A DNA stretch of 64,000 nt from a virus. Every line of letters begins with the position of its first letter. The stretch's first letter is position 1. The notes under the pieces were generated by a model that saw nothing but the letters and a program-made list of their open reading frames with translations, was not told the DNA's origin and made no database searches. This document shows, piece by piece, positions 1-61,241 of the stretch. The position numbers and the translations under genes were made by a program. Where the stretch lies: positions 62,001 to 126,000 of the IMG/VR virus record IMGVR_UViG_3300030390_001877. The stretch is one strand, 5' to 3'.

Positions 1-148
1 ATAATCCCAGAAGGATCGTTTACCTTAGTCGTTACACCTTGATAAGAATTACTTCCTACCCTTGGCTCGGTATTGTCTACTTGAGAGTTCCACCGAATTC
101 ACACAATTTGTTCATGCTTATTACTAAGCAGCCAGACAATAATCGTCT
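1..148 (-). ncRNA. Group I intron in tape-measure gene (5' part, runs off left edge)
   Basis: This is the 5' part of a self-splicing intron. The exon ends in CCAGAT, which pairs with GTCTGG a few bases into the intron to form P1 with the U.G wobble expected at a group I 5' splice site. The core contains AATTCGGTGGAA, CAATACCGAGCC and AACGACTAAGG, and closely matches the second terminase intron (14872-15156), including the stretch AACGACTAAGGTAAACGATC. The helix CGGT/ACCG here becomes CAGA/TCTG there, a compensatory change. The 3' splice site and any internal endonuclease gene lie outside the window. Confidence 0.85.
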
Positions 149-1317
149 ATCTGGATCAAAGCTTTCTGACTTCGCTTCATGCTTTCGTCATCTACTTTCA
201 ATGATGTACCAAACATACTCAATCCTGTGAATATATCTTCTTGCTGATCTTGAGAAATCTTACCTTTTGCAGCAAATTTGAACTTTACCCAAGCATCAGT
301 TGTATCTTTTAAACTAAGTCCCATCTTATCAACAATACTATTGATAAAAAGCATATCTGTTGCTGCGGCATCAGCACTACCAGCAGCAGCTAGCATAGAT
401 GCATCGATCCCTTGAAATGTCTGCCCAACACGTTTAATAGCAACAGTCCCTTCAAACAAAGCAAACAAACTTGCATAAGAACGGATCATATTACGAGTAG
501 AGTCATTTAATCCTCCCTGAACAACATTCAATCCCATCATATTACGTTTTAAAGATTTAGTCTCTCTGTTAACAGATCTCATCTCAGAAGCTAGACGAGT
601 CATTGCAGCAGTGTCACCTACTCTAACAGCATCTCCAAATCTTTTATCATAAGAAGACATATCCTTTCCAGAAGATTTCATGTTCTGATAATAAGCTGTA
701 CTTTGGAAACGTGCTATCTTGTTTGCAAAAGCTTGTTGACGTTTAGTAGCAGCCTTGGCAAGCTTATCCTGCTGTGCGTAGAAGTCTTTCATCTTCTTGA
801 GTTCTTCATCTTGGGCAGTCATCTTCTTGACGTGTTGCTTCATGAAAGCATTATTAACTTCTTCACTAGAAGATTTTATTTTAGCATTATTCCTAAGTTT
901 TATTTTAAGAAGATCTTGCTCTCGTTTGTTTTCCTTTTTAAAACGTTCTTCTACATTAGCTTTTAAAGCAGCTTCCACCCTATTAAAGTCCGATACCTTA
1001 GCAGAAGCTACATCCCTCCCAGCTTGCTTACTTTGCTTGTAAACTTTTAACCTTTCTTGTAAAGATTTCCTGCCGTTAGAAATTTCCTTATCTCTCGCAG
1101 CTTTGTCTTCTTTAATACGTTTGTTGATGATGTACTTTTGGTAATTAGCCGTCCCTTTAAGATCTTTCCTTTTAGACCTCTCAATCTTACCAGACCTTTT
1201 TACAGCCCTCATCCCCATGGAATCCAGCATCTTATCGATTTCTTTAGCTTGTTTACCAACTCCTTTAGTATTCAAGTCTATATCAATAAAAAACTGTTCA
1301 ATCATATTATCTGCCAT
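149..1317 (-). CDS. Tail tape-measure protein, exon 1 (N-terminal 389 codons)
   Basis: The tape measure sets tail length and fills the tail tube. The visible part starts MADNMIEQFF. It has a long Lys/Arg/Glu-rich, coiled-coil-prone region (about residues 25-240), then a more hydrophobic Ala/Gly-rich stretch (about 280-330), as is usual for the front of these proteins. It sits directly after the tail chaperone pair, the standard order. The reading frame stops 25 nt beyond the splice site, inside the intron, so splicing is needed for the full protein. AGAGGA lies 6-7 nt before the ATG. The assignment rests on position and composition more than on motifs. Confidence 0.75.
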
Positions 1318-2607: not shown

Positions 2608-3969
2608 TTATTCGTAGCTTAATGTACCAGTGATCTCAACCATGTGGATTGCATTGGTGAGGGTGGCTTTGAAAGAAATTTGACGGAAAGTACGAGCAGC
2701 TTTATCAGCAAGAGGTACTTCTGAAACATCAGGAACAAATATTTCAAAATCATCATTGATGAAATTGTGTGTACCATCAGGTGTATAGTTTGTAAGGGTA
2801 GCTTGTAAAATACTCTTAACTTGGTTGATACCTTTGTTATTAAATGCTACTTTACCCGTCTTCTGATTGATCAGGAATGTGTTGAAATCCGCTTCAATAT
2901 CTACTTGCAGATTATCACGACCAACAATATTATCTAACCATTCACCAGAAGCTACTTTACCAACAACACCGATAATAGGATCACTACCTGCATCACTACC
3001 TACTCTTGCAAAGAAGTCTGCGTTTACAAGTTTAAGTTTATTCTGTTGAGTACTTGTGAGAGGTTTACCTACAGCATTCAATGACGCTGGTACAGCAGCT
3101 ACTCTACGATTACCATAAGTGATACTTCCTGTTACAGCAAAAGCAGCTTCTGCTAAACGTGCAACCTCTGGGAAAGACTCTTTAGCCTCTTGGTGATAGA
3201 TACCCATTGTACGGAAGAAGTTACCATCTTTTAAGTCTACTAGTGTTCCTGTTTGTACAGCATCGAAAACAGTTGTCTCATCAATAGAAGTAGCATATAC
3301 TTTAAGCTTAGCCTCAATTTCAGTTGCCATATCTGTTACGAATGTGTTAGACTTCTCTTGAGCTGTTACATAATAGAAGTCTTCTGTTTCTGCTTCGATA
3401 GCTGCTAATACGTCTGCTGCTGATTCTGTACTTGTACCAAAAGTTTCATCCATCCCAACTATGTTAGAAACAGTAAACCATTTACCAGAAGTAGATGATA
3501 AAACTAAGGTTGCATCAACACCAACACCAACTACAGTAGTAGTGATGACCGCTGCAATATCTGTATCAGCATCAATCAACACTTTCATTGCATCTAGGAT
3601 TGTTTGTGCAGTAGGAGTTGCTCCTGCTGTAACACTGAACGTTGCTGAAACTGCATCTTCTGCTGCAATAGTTACAGAATACTCTTTAGCTTCCACTGCA
3701 TCTTCAGGTGTAAGAATTGAATCAACAATTTGACGACCGATTAAAATTTCTTGTGGAGCGGGTGTTTGTGAAAAAGCACCTAGTCCCGCTTTATAAACTG
3801 GATGGGTAGTGGCGATACCATCTTCAACCATTGCTTTAGTACTACCATATGAACGAACTCTTTCTGGAAAGAAATTGTGTTGTCCAATAAATAGAATAGT
3901 ACCAAAACCTTGGCGTGATACAATTGCTGTATCTAAGGCAATATTGGCTATTGCTAAATTAACTGACAT
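2608..3969 (-). CDS. Contractile tail sheath protein (DUF3383-like)
   Basis: 453 residues. The N-terminus MSVNLAIANIALDTAIVSRQGFG, followed by GTILFIGQHNFF and a DGIATTHPVYKAG-like region, is characteristic of the DUF3383 sheath family of myoviruses. A variable, Thr/Ala-rich middle insert (about residues 85-230) looks like a surface domain. The C-terminus (RQISFKATLTNAIHMVEITG) matches the conserved sheath tail segment. It lies between the tail terminator and tube genes. This gene is the main reason for calling the phage a myovirus. Confidence 0.85.
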   Translation of the reverse strand: MSVNLAIANIALDTAIVSRQGFGTILFIGQHNFFPERVRSYGSTKAMVEDGIATTHPVYKAGLGAFSQTPAPQEILIGRQIVDSILTPEDAVEAKEYSVTIAAEDAVSATFSVTAGATPTAQTILDAMKVLIDADTDIAAVITTTVVGVGVDATLVLSSTSGKWFTVSNIVGMDETFGTSTESAADVLAAIEAETEDFYYVTAQEKSNTFVTDMATEIEAKLKVYATSIDETTVFDAVQTGTLVDLKDGNFFRTMGIYHQEAKESFPEVARLAEAAFAVTGSITYGNRRVAAVPASLNAVGKPLTSTQQNKLKLVNADFFARVGSDAGSDPIIGVVGKVASGEWLDNIVGRDNLQVDIEADFNTFLINQKTGKVAFNNKGINQVKSILQATLTNYTPDGTHNFINDDFEIFVPDVSEVPLADKAARTFRQISFKATLTNAIHMVEITGTLSYE

Positions 3970-3997
3970 TATTAGTGTCTCCTAATATTAGGGTTTA

Positions 3998-4687
3998 TTA
4001 TTGTTCGCTAGGAGCGATTACGTTAACGTGTAGATCTTGTTCTGGTGTATCTGAACCTTCTAAGAAGAGTCCTCCTTGAACACCGTTCACAGGATTTTCT
4101 GTATCCATCTCAATTTTATCGAAATATTGTGCTTTATCAGCTTTAACGTCAATAGTGTCGATTGTTGCCAAGACTAGATTAAATTCATTTGTTTCTAAGT
4201 ATTTATCATTCATTGAAAAGTTTGAAGGGATGATATCTGATTTATCCAGCACTCTTGCTGTGGTATTGACTGTTGTTCCAGTGTTAGCATTCTGTGCATA
4301 CAGAGTATCTATCATATCCCGCACTTCATCTACTACCATTAACATGTGTGTCTTGTTAACAACATAGTCACTAGAAGCACCACTTGTCCCATAAAACTTT
4401 ATTTGGAGGATAACCTTCTTATGCGCTACATAAACATAGTTACCTTCGTCATCAAAGAACCTGTCTGTGAGGTCAACTCCATCGGGGACAGTTCTGATAT
4501 AATCAACTAAACAATAAGGGTAATCTGGGATAGGAGGATTCTTACCTCCCTGAGAGTAAACTCTTGCTGGGAATATACTTGGACGAGTTGTACCACCTGC
4601 TCCTGCAGACTGAGATACTTCATCCCCAATAAACTCTTTTAAGGTGTCTATGACAGCGTTCTCAAGAGCTTTAGTATCTATACTCAT
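3998..4687 (-). CDS. Tail terminator / neck protein
   Basis: 229 residues. It starts MSIDTKALENAVIDTLKEFIG and has the pattern of tail-terminator proteins: a helix, then PDYPYCLVDYIRT, then beta strands with a KVILQIKFYGT segment. It overlaps the upstream head-closure gene by 4 nt (ATGA). Its place before the sheath gene fits a role in capping the tail and joining it to the neck. The assignment rests on position and fold pattern. Confidence 0.6.
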   Translation of the reverse strand: MSIDTKALENAVIDTLKEFIGDEVSQSAGAGGTTRPSIFPARVYSQGGKNPPIPDYPYCLVDYIRTVPDGVDLTDRFFDDEGNYVYVAHKKVILQIKFYGTSGASSDYVVNKTHMLMVVDEVRDMIDTLYAQNANTGTTVNTTARVLDKSDIIPSNFSMNDKYLETNEFNLVLATIDTIDVKADKAQYFDKIEMDTENPVNGVQGGLFLEGSDTPEQDLHVNVIAPSEQ

Positions 4688-13728: not shown

Positions 13729-15816
13729 TTAAAACAAACGTTTTGAAGATTGTTTGCCCATAGAGGATTTCATCTTAGAGTATTGTGTGTTGCCCGAGGA
13801 TAATTGTGGGATGGCTACTGCTTTGTGGATTTTGGAAGCGCTGAGGTAATTAAAAGCTGAAGCTACTGTATCTCCGAAATCATCCTTTTTAGTTGTAGTG
13901 GATCTTTCTCCATCAAAACCTTCAAGTTGTTTCATTATGTAATTATAAGTTTTCTCTGAGAAAGTATTCTTAGCTATTTTAATAAGTCCATTCTCTGCTG
14001 CTGTTGCGAAGGGGAGAAATTTAGTTAGCTTATTTTTATTGATAGGGCAAGGGTCTTTCTTGAAAATAAAACCGTGTTCATTGAAGAATTTAGCTTGTTG
14101 ATTCCAAAGAGATTTTCCTGCGGCAGCAGGGTCCTGAGGCGCTACGATGTAAACTTCATCACCGTCATACTCTGCCTGTTTAATCATTGTATTATCCCTA
14201 TCACCAGACCTCTTATATATCGCCCCTTGTATATCATCTACTTCATCGTAAAAATCTTCATGATATTCACCTGCTAAAACATAATAACCGTCATGAGTCT
14301 TATACATCTTGATACAAGTTGTTGGATCAGGGTTTTTCTGCGAAGTTGTCCTTTCGGAAGCCCCGAAATCGTAAGCCCTAACAGCAAAAGCTTTAGAAGG
14401 TATCTTATCTATTTCCTGTAACCACTCCCTCTTAAAATACTTAGTCCCGAAAGCCATTTCAGCCCAACAACCGTGTAGTAGTTGTGCCCTGTCAATATCA
14501 TTAAGACCTTCTAAGAATGCGAGGTAGGATGGATTAATTTCCATCATGATCGGATTGTCGTATATAGTACCACTAACAAAAGAAAAGGATAGTATCTTAC
14601 CTTCCCATCTTTCCTTAGGAATTTCCAATCTAGTACCTAACTCTTCTCGTGAATTACCCCATATATACTCACCTGCTTCTTGTACAAAGTATCTGACTAC
14701 TCCATCTTTTTCTGGGTCAGGAAAACCTTCATCATCTAAGTACCATGAGATCATATCCTTTATCTCGTGCGAAGGAGAAGGGTTACAACTTATTACCATT
14801 CTTGAGAAGTGTTTAGAAGGGGATCTTAGTCGGGACATGAAGTACTCTATCTGTTCCCATTCGAATTGTGTCTATTGTTGTTCAAAGAAGTTCGTTACTC
14901 TTCTTCCGTCTATAAAGACTGCCTTATATCACTATAAGAGTTCAGACTATATCATCATCTACGTGAGATGCTGTGCGCTTCCACCCACTTAGGTGTACAG
15001 GTTTCATAATCCTTTCTAAAGGATCGTTTACCTTAGTCGTTGCACCTTCAAACTGATTACTCAGTAAGCTTGGCTCAGAATTGTCTTTCGTAAAAGAGTT
15101 TCTCTGAATTCACACAGTTATCGATATGTATCGCTACATAAAGGGGCACACTGTTTACCCTCATCTATACCAACAAATGTAAACTCTTGTCCCTGAGCAT
15201 CCATCTTTGACCTAGCTACGTTCTCTGCTTGCTGGTATTTTATTTTAGCACCATTAGGAAATACTACTTCCATCTTATGATCTCTTATTGCCTTAGGTTC
15301 AGAACCTTTAGGCATCTGTTCGTAAATTGCTCTGGCGTTAGGCCAAAGTCCCCCTAATAACTGCGGGTTTGTTCTACGGTACATGATGCAGTTTGTCTTA
15401 CCGTCATCTAAAAGCATTAGAGGGAGGTGATTTAGTATGGTACTTTTCCCAGATCCTGCCAATAAATCTCTCTGGGACAGTTTCGAGTTCGTTACACTCT
15501 TCCACAGTTTCCTGTGTTGTCGGATCATATCTTCTACTTATAAAAGTAGCCCTACGTTTCGAATTCACTTGAATCCTACTCTCAAAATGAGATGACCTCT
15601 ACACCCATGAATTTAATCATTCGGCTCGGTATTGGCATATGATATAACATATCACTTAGCTTCCACCGAATTAGCAGGGGAGTTTATGGTGTGACCACAG
15701 GAATTTTAAGCCCCACCTATTACTAGTATTTGAGTATCAGAAGCTCTTTTCAACATAAGAGCTTGCTTCTTACTTGCAGGAGAGAAAAAGGGTTTCTTTC
15801 CTTTCTGTTTTGTCAT
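13729..15816 (-). CDS. terL: Terminase large subunit, three exons split by two group I introns
   Basis: ATPase and nuclease motor that packages DNA. Exon 1 is 15816-15709 (36 codons, MTKQKGKKPFFSPASKKQ to VIGGA). Exon 2 is 15459-15157 (101 codons, AGSGKST to FVGIDEG). Exon 3 is 14871-13729 (380 codons, TQFEWEQIEYFMSRLRS to the stop). Joined, they give 517 residues in one frame, normal for TerL. Walker A (GGAAGSGKS) is rebuilt only when exons 1 and 2 join; Walker B is VGIDE. The nuclease region includes RAYDFGASE and a late FGDTVASAF. Exon ends in T and intron ends in G fit the group I rule at both introns. Exon 1's ATG overlaps the stop of the HNH gene. Confidence 0.92.
14872..15156 (-). ncRNA. 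Group I intron 2 of terminase gene (285 nt)
   Basis: The exon GGGT pairs with intron GCCC (P1 with U.G at the splice site). The core has TGTGTGAATTC, GACAATTCTGAGCC, AACGACTAAGG and GATATAGTCTGAAC. GACTA can pair with TAGTC as P7. It is closely related to the tape-measure intron, with a compensatory helix change. The intron ends AACAACAATAG. No endonuclease reading frame fits inside it. Removal joins DEG to TQFEW in frame. Confidence 0.9.
15460..15708 (-). ncRNA. Group I intron 1 of terminase gene (249 nt)
   Basis: Begins TAAAATTCC after exon ...GGTGGGGCT and ends ATTTATTG before GCAGGATCT. The core has CTAATTCGGTGGAAGC and CAATACCGAGCC. GGTCAT pairs with ATGATCC with one bulge, as in P7. 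It differs in peripheral parts from the other two introns, so it is a separate insertion or has diverged. No internal gene. It interrupts the P-loop codons between GGA and AGSGKS. The P1 pairing is weaker by eye than in the other two. Confidence 0.82.
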
Positions 15817-16622
15817 TTTATAAAATCCTCGTGTTTTTCTTTAAATATTTTCAATGCTTCAGGTTGTCTACTGCCTTTGCAAAATCTGCTTATCATAGAT
15901 TCTGCTATACCTCGTTCAGATGAAATAAATTTCAAAGATTTTTTGTTTATTAATCTATCTTCTATAATATCAACAACATCATGTAGACCTAGTTTAGTTG
16001 TAGGATGTTTTCTTTTTATGAAATCTCCTTTCTTGAAACCTGTTATACTAGATAACCTTCTACCTGACAACCCATCCCATAGTGTATCTGGACTGGATAC
16101 AGTTAAGCCTAGATTTTCACATATACATTTATACTCTAATCCTGCATTAAAAAGAAATCCTACATATTTCCATTCATACTTGGTAAGGGAACTCAAGGTC
16201 TTCTCTTTTCCATAACTTTCTGCATAATATTTTATAGTATTAAACTCTGAGGTAACCCACTGTAAATTGTACCACATATTATTATCTTTTGTATTATCTA
16301 TATGGTCTATTACTAAACAAGAATTTTCATCAGGAGTGTCCACTAAAAAATGTAAAGCTACTAACCTGTGTACCCTCCTGTGTTTGTATTCCCTATTGCC
16401 ATGGGACATAGCTACCTCTTTATAACCATCCTTATCTGTTTTAGGTTTAAGTATACGTTCTCTTACTTTCTTAACACCTTCTATTCTATGGCGATTAACC
16501 CAAGGAGTCTCTCTTTTCAAACTCTTAACTCTTCCATAATTACTTATCTGATATTTACCTTCAAAGTCTTGGATATCTTTCCATTCTTCCTTAACAGGGA
16601 ATGCTATGTTATTCCAAATCAT
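15813..16622 (-). CDS. NUMOD4/HNH homing endonuclease, free-standing
   Basis: 269 residues. The N-terminus EEWKDIQDFEGKYQISNYGRVKSLKR is a NUMOD4 domain. HRRVHRLVALHFL and VIDHIDNTKDNNMWYNLQWVT form the HNH nuclease. The C-terminal part (LTKYEWKYVGFLFNAGLEYKCI..., KSLKFISSERGIAESMISRF) looks like DNA-binding helix repeats. The stop TGA overlaps the start ATG of terminase exon 1, and it has its own promoter (16789-16817). It probably cuts a site in or near terL in intronless relatives and could mobilise the adjacent introns. Confidence 0.88.
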   Translation of the reverse strand: MIWNNIAFPVKEEWKDIQDFEGKYQISNYGRVKSLKRETPWVNRHRIEGVKKVRERILKPKTDKDGYKEVAMSHGNREYKHRRVHRLVALHFLVDTPDENSCLVIDHIDNTKDNNMWYNLQWVTSEFNTIKYYAESYGKEKTLSSLTKYEWKYVGFLFNAGLEYKCICENLGLTVSSPDTLWDGLSGRRLSSITGFKKGDFIKRKHPTTKLGLHDVVDIIEDRLINKKSLKFISSERGIAESMISRFCKGSRQPEALKIFKEKHEDFIK

Positions 16623-53333: not shown

Positions 53334-53560
53334 TGCGTGATATGAGAGGTGTTATTATTGAAGAAAAAGATACTATTGCTTACGGTAAATCTTCTAGACA
53401 TGATCCTATTGCAATCGGAGAAGTAGTAAGCATTTCTGATGACGGTGTAATCCTTGTGAAAGGGGTGAACAACTCTAAAGGAGGTTATATAAGTAAACCT
53501 GAAAGGATTATTGTTTTGCCGAGTCATTATAAGGAGAAGGGTGTTGACAGTACCGAGTAA
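53333..53560 (+). CDS. Small SH3/KOW-like protein, 75 aa
   Basis: MRDMRGVIIEEKDTIAYGKS, then IGEVVSISDDGVILVKGVNN and ERIIVLP. The alternating strands and glycine turns look like a short SH3-like barrel found in many small phage proteins. Overlaps the HNH start. Confidence 0.5.
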   Translation: MRDMRGVIIEEKDTIAYGKSSRHDPIAIGEVVSISDDGVILVKGVNNSKGGYISKPERIIVLPSHYKEKGVDSTE

Positions 53561-54128
53561 GAGTGATATTGCTAAACGTAAGAAGAAGTTAGATACTTGG
53601 TTGAAAGGGTTGGAAGAAGATGGTAGTATGTCTGAGAAGAAGTTATGTACTCTTCTGAGGAGTTCTGTTAGGAACGTTTGGATGCGACACGCAGTTAAGC
53701 TTTCCTACCTATATAGTAAAACATACCCTGATATGGACAATTCTACTAGAACTAAGTGGCTTATAGATTGTGAACATTGCGGAGAAGCGTTTAAAACTAG
53801 TGACGTACAGGTTGACCATATTGTAGGTGAACATAGTCTATTAACTCTAGAGGATGTTGTTCCTTTCGCAAGAAGTATTCTCGGAGTAAGTCATAGTGAT
53901 CTAAGAATTCTCTGTGTTCCCTGTCACGAAGCGATCACCTATGCCGAACGTTATGGTTTATCTATAGAAGAGGCTTTTGCTGAGAAGAAGGTTATTGCTA
54001 AAATAAAGCAAACCGTTGCAAAACAAAAAGCTGAGTTGAAAAAGTTTGGATATAAGCCTGCAGAGTGCTCTAATGAAGATAAACGTAGAGCTTTGTATAG
54101 ATTACTTTTGAAAGATGGGAAAATTTAA
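53544..54128 (+). CDS. HNH endonuclease, free-standing
   Basis: 194 residues from TTG (a GTG lies one codon earlier), with GGAG 7 nt upstream. LIDCEHCGEAFKTSDVQVDHI and LRILCVPCHEAITYAER make a zinc-bound HNH: C-x2-C, then VDHI, then C-x2-C-H. The N-terminal 75 residues are helical and basic. Probably a homing or nicking endonuclease. It overlaps the previous gene and sits in an ordinary gene run, so it may be a recent insertion. Confidence 0.85.
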   Translation: MTVPSKSDIAKRKKKLDTWLKGLEEDGSMSEKKLCTLLRSSVRNVWMRHAVKLSYLYSKTYPDMDNSTRTKWLIDCEHCGEAFKTSDVQVDHIVGEHSLLTLEDVVPFARSILGVSHSDLRILCVPCHEAITYAERYGLSIEEAFAEKKVIAKIKQTVAKQKAELKKFGYKPAECSNEDKRRALYRLLLKDGKI

Positions 54129-57956: not shown

Positions 57957-60900
57957 ATGAATATTACTACAATAATAAAAAGTAACGGAGATGAAGTACC
58001 TTTTGACCCTAGTAAACTTAACCGCATGGCTGAGTGGGGTAATACTGTAGGTGTATGTTGGTCTGAGTTAGTGTTTGATGCCCTTAAAAAGGTAACTGAC
58101 AAATGTAAAACTAAAGACTTGCAACAAGCACTAATTGACGCTTGTGCCGAAAAACAAACTAAAGAACATATGGATATGGCAGGTAGGCTTTACTTAGGGT
58201 CTCTTTATAAAACTGTTCACGGAGGTTTTGAAACACGTCCTAATTTAACAGATTTCTACTATGATATGCTATCCAAAGGAGTATGGGAAAAGTTAAACTA
58301 TGACGACACTGAGTTAGAGTACTTAAACGATGTTTTAGATAATGATAAAGATTTGAATTACAAATTATCTACTATTAAACAGATCAGCATGAAGTATTCT
58401 AAGAAGTTTCAAGGTGAAGTTTGTGAGACACCTCAATATACTTTTATGGGTATAGCTATGAAAGCTATGGAAGCTCAACCTGAGGAACGTAGATTAGAAG
58501 ATGTAACCAAACTTTATACATATTTAAGCGATCTAAAGATTAATATGCCAACACCTTTCCTAGCAGGTTTACGGACTTCCTTTAAAGGTTTTGCTAGTTG
58601 TTGTGTTATTAAATCTGAGGATACAGCAGATTCTATAGAGAATTTAGTTCACGCAGCTTATAGATTCACTACTGCCTCAAGTGGAATTGGCTGTACATTA
58701 ACAACTAGGTCTGTAAAAGATTCTATCCGTATGCAGCCAAGTAAACATACAGGTAAGATACCTTATTATAGATATTTACAAGGAGCAGTTAAATCTACCA
58801 AACAAGAGGTTAGAGGTGGAGGTGGTACAGTTCACTTTACGGTATTAGACCCTGAAGTTGAAACTTTACTTAGATTGAAACACCCTACGACAGTAGAAGA
58901 CAGACGTATACGAGGTTTAGATTATTCTCTAGGGGCTACTAAGCTTTTAGCTGAGAAAGCTGCTTTAAAGAAAGAGTGGATGTTAGTTTCATACTACGAT
59001 TCACCTGAACTTTATGAAGCTCATTTTAAAGGTTATGATGAATTTAAAAAAGCTTATCAAGAGTATGAGAAAAGTAATTCTCCTAGGAAGTACGTAAATG
59101 CTTTTGACGTATTGAAATTATTCTTAACTCAACGTGGTGATACAGGAAGAGTTTACCACACTTGGTTAGATGAAATGAACACGCATACTTCTTTTAAAGA
59201 TCCTATTTATAGTAGTAATCTGTGTGTTGCACCTGAGACGCAGATTCTGACAGATAAAGGTTATCTAACAATTGCAGAATTGGAAGGTGAAACTGTTAAT
59301 GTGTGGAATGGTGAAGAATTCTCCGAAACTATTGTTCTTAAAACAGGTAAGGATCAAGAACTTGTAAAAGTTCTTACAGACAATGGAGAAGAATTAGAAT
59401 GCACCAAGTATCATAAATTTTACGTAAAAACTGGATACCACAAAGCAGGAATAAAGGAAGTGAAAGCTTTTGAATTACAACCAGAGGATAAGTTAATAAA
59501 GTGGGAGTTGCCAACCATCGAAGGAAATAAGGTGTTGCAATTCCCTTACGATAACGGTATTTTTTCCGCAGATGGTACGGAAGTTTTAAAAGCAGGAGAG
59601 AACCATAACCACCAACAAGTTATCCTGATGGATCAGAAATTGCAAACTGAAAGTAGATTATCTTGTAGGTATAGTAAAAGGTTAGATCAAAAGGCTACAC
59701 AGGGACGGATAGTACTTACTACAAACCTCTTACAAACTAAATACTTTGTCCCTAATGAAGAATATACTGTTGCTTCCCGTATGGACTGGTTGGCTGGGTA
59801 TTTAGACGGGGATGGTTGCTATACTAAAAGTGGTACAATACAAGCTGCAAGTGTAGAGAAGGATTTCCTGTTACGGATTAAGCGTATGTTGGATTGTAGT
59901 GGAGTATTTTCGTCAGTTAGATTCGGTAGAGAGGAAAAAGAAAGTACTATGCCACCTCGACACAATGGTACTGGAAAAGGACGAGTATGTTCTTGTAAAA
60001 CTCTCTGGGTACTTACCATTGCAAGTAAGGAGGTGGATAAGCTATTAGATTTAGGTTTGGTTACCGAAAGATTACCTCTTGTTCGGAGCATTACTGACAG
60101 AAGCTGTAACCATTTCGTGAAGGTACTAGATGTTATAGGCCAAGGCCGCAAAGCTGACACATTCTGTTTTACAGAAAAACAACGTGGAATGGGTATGTTC
60201 AACGGTATACTAACAGGCCAATGCCAAGAAATTTTCTTACCCACTAAAGGGTTTGAAAACATTGTAGATATGTACGATGCAACAAAAGGGGTAGAAGCAG
60301 GAGAAATAGCTTTATGTTTCCTAAGCTGTCTTGTTGCGGGACGTGTATCCGAAGAAGAGTACGAAGATGTAGCATATTATAGTCTACTTGCGGTTGATAA
60401 TGTTATAGATTTGATGGAATACCCTTTCCCTCAGGTAGAGAACACTGCTAAGGGTAGACGAAGTGTTGGTATAGGTATTACTAATCTGGCACACGACTTG
60501 GCTGTAAAAGGTTTAAGTTATTCTAGCTTAGAAGGTAAAAATTATATGCATAGGTTAGCTGAGATGCATAGTTATTATCTTCACAAGGCAAGTTTACGTT
60601 TAGCTAAAGAAAAAGGTAATTGTTCTCTGATAAATAGAACTAAATACCCTGATGGTTGGTTACCTATTGACACATACAACAAAAATGTTGATGGTGTTCA
60701 TACACAAGGTTTGCAGTTTGATTGGGAAGGTTTACGTAAAGGTATTATCGAGAACGGAGGAATTCGTAACTCTGTATTAGAAGCTACACCACCTGCAGAA
60801 AGTTCTTCTCAGGCTAGTGAAACTACTAATAGTTTATATCCTATACGAGAGTATTACACAACTAAGCGTTCTGGTAGTATAGTCAATATCTTTGCAGCAC

Positions 60901-61241
60901 CAGATATTGACAACCCAGTAATTAAAAGTAATTATGAACTAGCCTATGATGTTCCGTCTAAGGACATAATAGATTGTTATGCTATTTTCCAAAAATTCCA
61001 CGGACAAGGTATCAGTGGAGATCTTTACACGGATTATAGTAAGTACCCTAACGAGAAAGTTCCTCTGTCTGTTATGGTGGATTTATACTTTTATTGTGTT
61101 AAGATGGGTTTGAAAAGTTTGTATTACCAAAACAGTAAAGGTGGTATTAAAGAAGGGAGTAACGTACTGGATGATGTAACCTCTACTAAAATAGACAGTT
61201 TACCAGATGAAGAAGATGACTGTGAAAGTTGTAAAATGTAG
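57957..61241 (+). CDS. nrdA: Ribonucleotide reductase class I large subunit with intein
   Basis: 1094 residues; 761 after splicing, the usual size. The N-terminal ATP-cone starts NITTIIKSNGDEVPFDPSKL. FLAGLRTSFKGFASCCVIKS holds a redox Cys. SSNLC joined to QEIFLPTKG rebuilds the conserved N-x-C-x-E core (catalytic Cys) across the intein. TPPAESSSQASETTNSLYPI and the final DDCESCKM (C-x2-C tail) fit class Ia. It reduces NDPs to dNDPs with NrdB. The intein sits exactly at the catalytic cysteine. Confidence 0.93.
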   Translation: MNITTIIKSNGDEVPFDPSKLNRMAEWGNTVGVCWSELVFDALKKVTDKCKTKDLQQALIDACAEKQTKEHMDMAGRLYLGSLYKTVHGGFETRPNLTDFYYDMLSKGVWEKLNYDDTELEYLNDVLDNDKDLNYKLSTIKQISMKYSKKFQGEVCETPQYTFMGIAMKAMEAQPEERRLEDVTKLYTYLSDLKINMPTPFLAGLRTSFKGFASCCVIKSEDTADSIENLVHAAYRFTTASSGIGCTLTTRSVKDSIRMQPSKHTGKIPYYRYLQGAVKSTKQEVRGGGGTVHFTVLDPEVETLLRLKHPTTVEDRRIRGLDYSLGATKLLAEKAALKKEWMLVSYYDSPELYEAHFKGYDEFKKAYQEYEKSNSPRKYVNAFDVLKLFLTQRGDTGRVYHTWLDEMNTHTSFKDPIYSSNLCVAPETQILTDKGYLTIAELEGETVNVWNGEEFSETIVLKTGKDQELVKVLTDNGEELECTKYHKFYVKTGYHKAGIKEVKAFELQPEDKLIKWELPTIEGNKVLQFPYDNGIFSADGTEVLKAGENHNHQQVILMDQKLQTESRLSCRYSKRLDQKATQGRIVLTTNLLQTKYFVPNEEYTVASRMDWLAGYLDGDGCYTKSGTIQAASVEKDFLLRIKRMLDCSGVFSSVRFGREEKESTMPPRHNGTGKGRVCSCKTLWVLTIASKEVDKLLDLGLVTERLPLVRSITDRSCNHFVKVLDVIGQGRKADTFCFTEKQRGMGMFNGILTGQCQEIFLPTKGFENIVDMYDATKGVEAGEIALCFLSCLVAGRVSEEEYEDVAYYSLLAVDNVIDLMEYPFPQVENTAKGRRSVGIGITNLAHDLAVKGLSYSSLEGKNYMHRLAEMHSYYLHKASLRLAKEKGNCSLINRTKYPDGWLPIDTYNKNVDGVHTQGLQFDWEGLRKGIIENGGIRNSVLEATPPAESSSQASETTNSLYPIREYYTTKRSGSIVNIFAAPDIDNPVIKSNYELAYDVPSKDIIDCYAIFQKFHGQGISGDLYTDYSKYPNEKVPLSVMVDLYFYCVKMGLKSLYYQNSKGGIKEGSNVLDDVTSTKIDSLPDEEDDCESCKM
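59223..60221 (+). mobile_element. NrdA intein, 333 aa, with LAGLIDADG endonuclease
   Basis: Residues 423-755. It starts CVAPETQILTDKGYLTIAEL (block A), with a TKYHKFYVKTG block B-like TxxH. DWLAGYLDGDGCYTKSG is a LAGLIDADG motif. It ends ADTFCFTEKQRGMGMFNGIL then TGQ before Cys+1. The last intein residue is Gln rather than Asn, a variant known from some viral reductase inteins. Removal restores SSNL-CQEIF in NrdA. It probably homes into intein-free nrdA alleles. Confidence 0.92.

What the first reader, a model, noticed from the sequence alone, without database searches (positions are those of the whole stretch)
13729..15816. Terminase split by two group I introns at its two ATP-site motifs
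Exon joining recreates Walker A (GGAAGSGKS) and continues directly after Walker B (VGIDE-G) in one frame of 517 codons. The two introns therefore interrupt the codons of the two ATP-site motifs. Both are under 300 nt and have no internal endonuclease. Seen directly: frames, splice-site T/G rule, P1 pairing for intron 2, P7 complementarity. Known: selfish introns favour conserved codons.
Basis: partly seen in the sequence, partly recalled or inferred. Interest (0 to 1): 0.8.

Follow-up and report, generated by a model that had tools for sequence, protein, structure and literature searches.

The report
Phage terminase gene with two introns
The DNA-packaging motor gene of this marine myovirus is cut into three pieces by two self-splicing RNA introns at its ATP-binding codons, next to a homing-endonuclease gene; a related cholera phage has a proven spliced intron at the very same place, so this is a good new example of a known arrangement.

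Summary
On the minus strand terL has three exons (15816-15709, 15459-15157, 14871-13729) and two phase-0 introns of 249 and 285 nt. Spliced, it reads 517 aa with GGA|AGSGKS (Walker A) and GIDEG|TQFEWE (Walker B), as uninterrupted relatives read. Intron 2 passes Rfam's group I threshold (90.5 bits). Intron 1 falls below it (40.1 against 50), but covariation across relatives, including P1, P7 and P10, supports both. Intron 1 matches, in sequence (75% nt) and insertion site, the terL intron of Vibrio phage ICP1, whose splicing was shown by RNA-seq and RT-PCR. Splicing in the window's own phage is inferred.

Intron and TerL trees conflict, so these introns move horizontally. Collaborative homing by the adjacent nuclease is plausible but unproven. 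terL introns, and this arrangement in ICP1, are published: a new member of a known kind.

The parts
15709..15816 (-). terL exon 1 (codons 1-36, ends ...VIGGA)
   Evidence: joined frame; homologous exon 1 in relatives
15460..15708 (-). Group I intron 1 (249 nt, ORF-less, insertion after codon 36, inside Walker A)
   Evidence: Rfam 40.1 bits, E 4.8e-8; covariation; 75% nt identical to the ICP1 terL intron, E 6e-29
15688..15696 (-). Internal guide sequence of intron 1 (GGTCACACC): P1 with exon 15717-15709 (GGTGGGGCT)
   Evidence: sequence; P1 covaries with the silent base of codon 35
15697..15702 (-). P10 strand of intron 1 (TCCTGT), pairs with exon 2 start 15459-15454 (GCAGGA)
15157..15459 (-). 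terL exon 2 (codons 37-137, AGSGKS...VGIDEG)
   Evidence: empty sites in relatives
14872..15156 (-). Group I intron 2 (285 nt, ORF-less, insertion after codon 137, two codons past the Walker B aspartate)
   Evidence: Rfam 90.5 bits, E 7.2e-22; covariation
15144..15147 (-). Internal guide sequence of intron 2 (GCCC): P1 with exon GGGT 15160-15157; P10 GTGT (15151-15148) with exon 3 ACAC (14871-14868)
   Evidence: P1 of the family
13729..14871 (-). terL exon 3 (codons 138-517 and stop, TQFEWE...)
   Evidence: Terminase_6N/6C
15813..16622 (-). Free-standing NUMOD4-HNH homing-endonuclease gene (269 aa) whose stop overlaps the terL start (ATGA)
   Evidence: Pfam NUMOD4 E 2.1e-17, HNH_3 E 3.2e-6; same slot in relatives

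Best explanation
terL of this myovirus is interrupted by two ORF-less, self-splicing group I introns. In the transcript each intron pairs its guide sequence with the end of the 5' exon (P1, U-G at the splice site) and with the start of the 3' exon (P10), uses the P7 guanosine site and joins the exons into one mRNA for a 517-aa Terminase_6-type motor with intact Walker A and B motifs. At DNA level the introns are mobile parasites of very conserved codons: intron 1 belongs to a lineage that moved horizontally between divergent terL genes at exactly the same codon. The overlapping upstream HNH gene may supply the nuclease that cuts intronless terL, so that nuclease gene and intron 1 (perhaps intron 2) are copied together (collaborative homing). 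Shown here: anatomy, RNA fold, homology to a published spliced intron, horizontal movement. Inferred: splicing in this phage (about 0.95), cleavage of terL by the HNH protein and co-homing (about 0.5). The confidence given is for the spliced group I intron claim.
For: Joined 517-codon frame and motifs; Rfam hits; covariation far above shuffled and slid controls, P1, P7 and P10 included; empty sites in intronless relatives; intron 1 homologous in sequence and site to the ICP1 terL intron, spliced in RNA-seq and RT-PCR (PMC10448857). Mobility: intron and TerL trees reject each other's clades; ICP1 and L024 introns 93% identical with exon 2 protein 29% identical. Nuclease: NUMOD4-HNH gene overlapping the terL start; such a gene in 16 of 18 loci with a Walker A intron against 7 of 26 without.
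Against: No RNA data for this phage. Intron 1 scores below Rfam's cut-off. Co-homing: RYC and eugene 12A10 have the nuclease gene without the intron, L065 and the Barba phages the intron without the gene; loci in the count are related to each other; no cleavage site is known.
Confidence: 0.94

Rival explanations
1. The introns are ordinary group I introns that lost their own endonuclease genes; the upstream HNH gene is an unrelated free-standing homing gene that arrived later at a nuclease hot spot (nuclease turnover, not collaboration). Splicing is the same; only the mobility part differs.
For: Large introns with an HNH gene inside occur in terL of phiTE and Shewanella phage 1/4; nuclease families are swapped beside nearly identical introns (L019 against L020); Barth et al. 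suggest turnover for ICP1.
Against: Association of the slot with Walker A introns, confounded by relatedness; F-CphI/psbA shows that collaboration exists (PMC6083498).
Confidence: 0.4
2. The gene is truly split: the fragments are translated separately (or it is decaying) and no splicing occurs.
For: Public records annotate the pieces as separate 'terminase' genes, and a start codon inside intron 1 opens a frame into exon 2.
Against: Conserved, covarying ribozyme with P1 and P10 to the exons; Walker A whole only after joining; proven splicing of the homologous ICP1 intron.
Confidence: 0.03
3. The introns are regulatory switches that delay TerL until late infection or until enough GTP is present, and are kept for that.
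For: Proposed for Bastillevirinae introns from splicing timing (PMC11878797).
Against: Presence, number and site vary freely among relatives, which suits parasites better; nothing here tests timing.
Confidence: 0.07

Closest known systems
terL intron and adjacent T5orf172 nuclease gene of Vibrio phage ICP1 (Barth et al. 2023, PMC10448857)
   Same: ORF-less group I intron at the same codon of terL, homologous in sequence (75% nt), with a homing-type nuclease gene against the first exon
   Different: ICP1 has one terL intron, a terminase only 30% identical and a T5orf172 nuclease where the window has NUMOD4-HNH; splicing proven in ICP1 only
terL introns of rV5 (PMC3606486), Moonbeam (PMC4299906), Bastillevirinae such as SIOphi (PMC11878797) and LL-H (1995, as cited there)
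   Same: one or more group I introns in terL; SIOphi terL self-splices in vitro
   Different: those of rV5 and Moonbeam carry endonuclease genes; their sites were not compared here with the window's
psbA intron and F-CphI of cyanophage S-PM2 (collaborative homing, PMC6083498)
   Same: ORF-less group I intron next to a free-standing nuclease gene
   Different: cleavage, and protection by the intron, were shown there and are untested here; other gene and other nuclease family

Membership tests
Group I intron (RF00028) | Covariance-model match at the curated cut-off | tested here: inconclusive
   Intron 2 90.5 bits, met; intron 1 40.1 bits, below 50, E 4.8e-8
Group I intron (RF00028) | Catalytic core P3-P8 with pseudoknotted P7, supported by compensatory changes | tested here: met
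   both introns' families
Group I intron (RF00028) | U-G pair at the 5' splice site in P1, G as last intron base, P10 | tested here: met
Group I intron (RF00028) | Self-splicing with guanosine | not testable with these tools
   only the homologous ICP1 intron is shown to be spliced, in vivo
Terminase large subunit (Terminase_6) | ATPase and nuclease domains with Walker A and B after joining | tested here: met
   Pfam Terminase_6N and 6C
Collaborative homing locus | ORF-less intron beside a free-standing homing-nuclease gene | tested here: met
Collaborative homing locus | Nuclease cuts the intronless allele at the insertion site and the intron blocks cutting | not testable with these tools
   needs a cleavage assay; only an association with related loci

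The most novel reading that the evidence does not exclude
terL in these marine myoviruses is a modular homing locus: nucleases of unrelated families take turns in one slot at the terL start and each mobilises the resident ORF-less intron at the P-loop codons, while a second intron lineage spreads to further conserved codons of the same gene, possibly by jumping between sites with the same 5'-exon pairing sequence (GGGU at sites 137 and 386).
Probability: 0.3. Interest if true: 0.6.

Novelty: new member of a known kind. Interest (0 to 1): 0.42.

Why it matters
It shows that a core packaging-motor gene is a dense target for self-splicing elements in one phage lineage: up to four introns per gene, ten positions, all in strongly conserved codons. 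It gives a clean natural series (same intron beside different nucleases, nuclease without intron, intron without nuclease, same intron in terminases about 30% identical) in which collaborative homing can be tested. It also warns annotators that terL in such phages appears as several short 'terminase' genes.

Tried and rejected
Split or decaying gene without splicing: rejected on the ribozyme fold, empty sites and ICP1. Alternative intron 1 splice giving GGASGSGKS: rejected by P1/P10 and by intronless relatives, which read GGAAGSGKS. Jump of intron 2 between sites: intron 2 groups with the site-386 introns of VnaP and R16F (support 86/85), but one clade for site 137 is not rejected (p-AU 0.058), so this is left open. 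The clades tested were named after the trees were seen. The genome-contig scan found no relative, but its query had mistyped residues at the start and it is not relied on. No paper was found describing the multi-intron terL of R16F, VnaP or qdvp001; that is absence from one open-access library only. Automatic splice calls were wrong for L001, L002, L003 and L072 (and L066, the same phage as L003); the first set was corrected by hand.

Full report
Observation. The window lies in a 132,129-base IMG/VR virus record, a myovirus whose TerL relatives are Vibrio, Shewanella and Pseudoalteromonas phages and, further away, Vequintavirinae. Reading terL on the minus strand, exon 1 (15816-15709, 108 nt), exon 2 (15459-15157, 303 nt) and exon 3 (14871-13729, 1143 nt) join to 517 codons plus stop. 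The joined protein matches Terminase_6N (E 2.1e-19) and Terminase_6C (E 7.2e-10) in Pfam. The joins read VIGGA|AGSGK and GIDEG|TQFEW. Both introns are phase 0, so no codon is split.

Group I identity. At Rfam's gathering threshold only intron 2 is found (90.5 bits, E 7.2e-22). A permissive scan also finds intron 1 (40.1 bits, below the 50-bit cut-off, E 4.8e-8). To decide, I collected relatives and aligned 10 introns at the intron 1 site and 18 of the intron 2 lineage. On a 60-pair group I structure including P1, P7 and P10, 96.6% of cells in the first set pair, 28 pairs show changes on both sides, and none of 500 shuffles reaches these values; sliding the partners by one to three columns destroys the signal. 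P1 follows the silent third base of codon 35 (A-U, G-C or U-A in different phages), P7 switches between GAUCA/UGAUC and GACUA/UAGUC, and P10 switches A-U to U-A. The second set gives 95.9% paired cells and 29 compensated pairs of 39.

Splice sites. Of 78 in-frame, stop-free site pairs obeying the U/G rule, the proposed pair for intron 1 scores best for P1 plus P10, and 2 of 2000 shuffled introns do as well. For intron 2 this test alone is weak (28 of 2000, and other pairs score higher); its sites rest on the covariance-model P1 and on homology. Intronless relatives such as RYC, eugene 12A10 and CR3 read GGAAGSGKS without a break.

Experimental precedent. Intron 1 is 75% identical over 218 nt (E 6e-29) to the terL intron of Vibrio phage ICP1, which lies at the same codon (GGA|AGGGKS) in a terminase only 30% identical. 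Barth and colleagues showed splicing of ICP1 terL by RNA-seq, RT-PCR and Sanger sequencing and noted a T5orf172 nuclease gene beside its first exon; they discuss collaborative homing and, as an alternative, nuclease turnover (PMC10448857). Splicing in the window's phage is therefore a strong inference, not a measurement.

The wider pattern. Relatives carry terL introns after residues 35 (Barba phages, L014, L047), 36, 37 (VnaP, R16F), 135, 137, 166, 169, 242, 271 and 386 in window numbering. R16F has four, with Rfam scores of 72-94 bits. These positions sit at the 79th to 100th percentile of local conservation, and none of 20,000 random draws matches six separate clusters, as reported in general for group I introns and inteins (PMC2814812). 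In L055-L057 the P-loop codons carry instead an in-frame LAGLIDADG insertion that looks like an intein.

Mobility. Intron and TerL trees of 13 phages conflict. Intron data reject the TerL clade {PH357, L024, L065, L072} (p-AU 7e-28), and TerL data reject the intron pairs {L002, L072} and {PH357, L012} (p-AU 1e-5 and 5e-32; the clades were named after the trees were seen). ICP1 and L024 introns are 93% identical over aligned bases while exon 2 is 29% identical in protein. These introns have moved horizontally into the same codon.

The nuclease slot. In the window a 269-aa NUMOD4-HNH gene (16622-15813) overlaps the terL start. In most relatives with a Walker A intron a homing-nuclease-type gene sits in the same place, of HNH, GIY-YIG or MUG113/T5orf172 type with zinc fingers (in PH357 only DNA-binding domains are recognised, and the HNH match of L024 is below the curated cut-off). 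L019 and L020 have nearly identical introns (97%) but an HNH and a GIY-YIG gene respectively. By hand count of distinct loci, 16 of 18 with a Walker A intron have such a gene and 7 of 26 without (Fisher p 6e-5); the loci are related, so this p value overstates the evidence. RYC and eugene 12A10 have the gene without introns; L065 and the Barba phages have introns without the gene. Collaborative homing, as shown for F-CphI and psbA (PMC6083498), is my preferred mechanism for mobility at about 0.5; nuclease turnover beside older introns is the main rival at about 0.4.

What is known. terL introns are published for LL-H, rV5, Moonbeam, Bastillevirinae and ICP1. The window's locus is therefore a new member of a known kind. 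What I did not find described, in the open-access library available here, is the concentration of up to four mostly ORF-less introns on conserved ATPase and nuclease codons of one gene in this lineage.

Noticed in passing
window 1-158, extending beyond the left edge (L079 7908-8159; HNH frame L079 7082-7642): A further group I intron (70 bits) in the tail tape measure gene, with a second partial intron match and an HNH frame downstream, like the ICP1 tape measure introns.
   Followed up: partly
G000:C1:44646-44934 (L082), outside the window: Another group I intron (53.7 bits) in the same genome, after a long frame that looks like a family A DNA polymerase.
   Followed up: partly
window 57957-61241 (+): The ribonucleotide reductase large-subunit gene carries an in-frame insert with intein-splicing and LAGLIDADG domain matches.
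   Followed up: no
L055, L056, L057 terL, about 3157-4224 (L057 3069-4136): At the Walker A P-loop of these terminases sits an in-frame insert of about 1 kb with a LAGLIDADG domain, probably an intein.
   Followed up: partly
L001 2573-2830, L002 2587-2839, L072 2747-3000: Site 36 introns whose proposed last base is A instead of the usual G, with an intact P10 to the exon; unusual for group I introns or a sign of a shifted splice site.
   Followed up: no
L048 6379-6630 and L017 4820-4981: Introns of the intron 2 lineage also lie downstream of terL, in other genes not identified here.
   Followed up: no
window 53511-54128 (+): A 205-aa frame with cysteine and histidine spacing that looks HNH-like by eye, but no Pfam match.
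   Followed up: no
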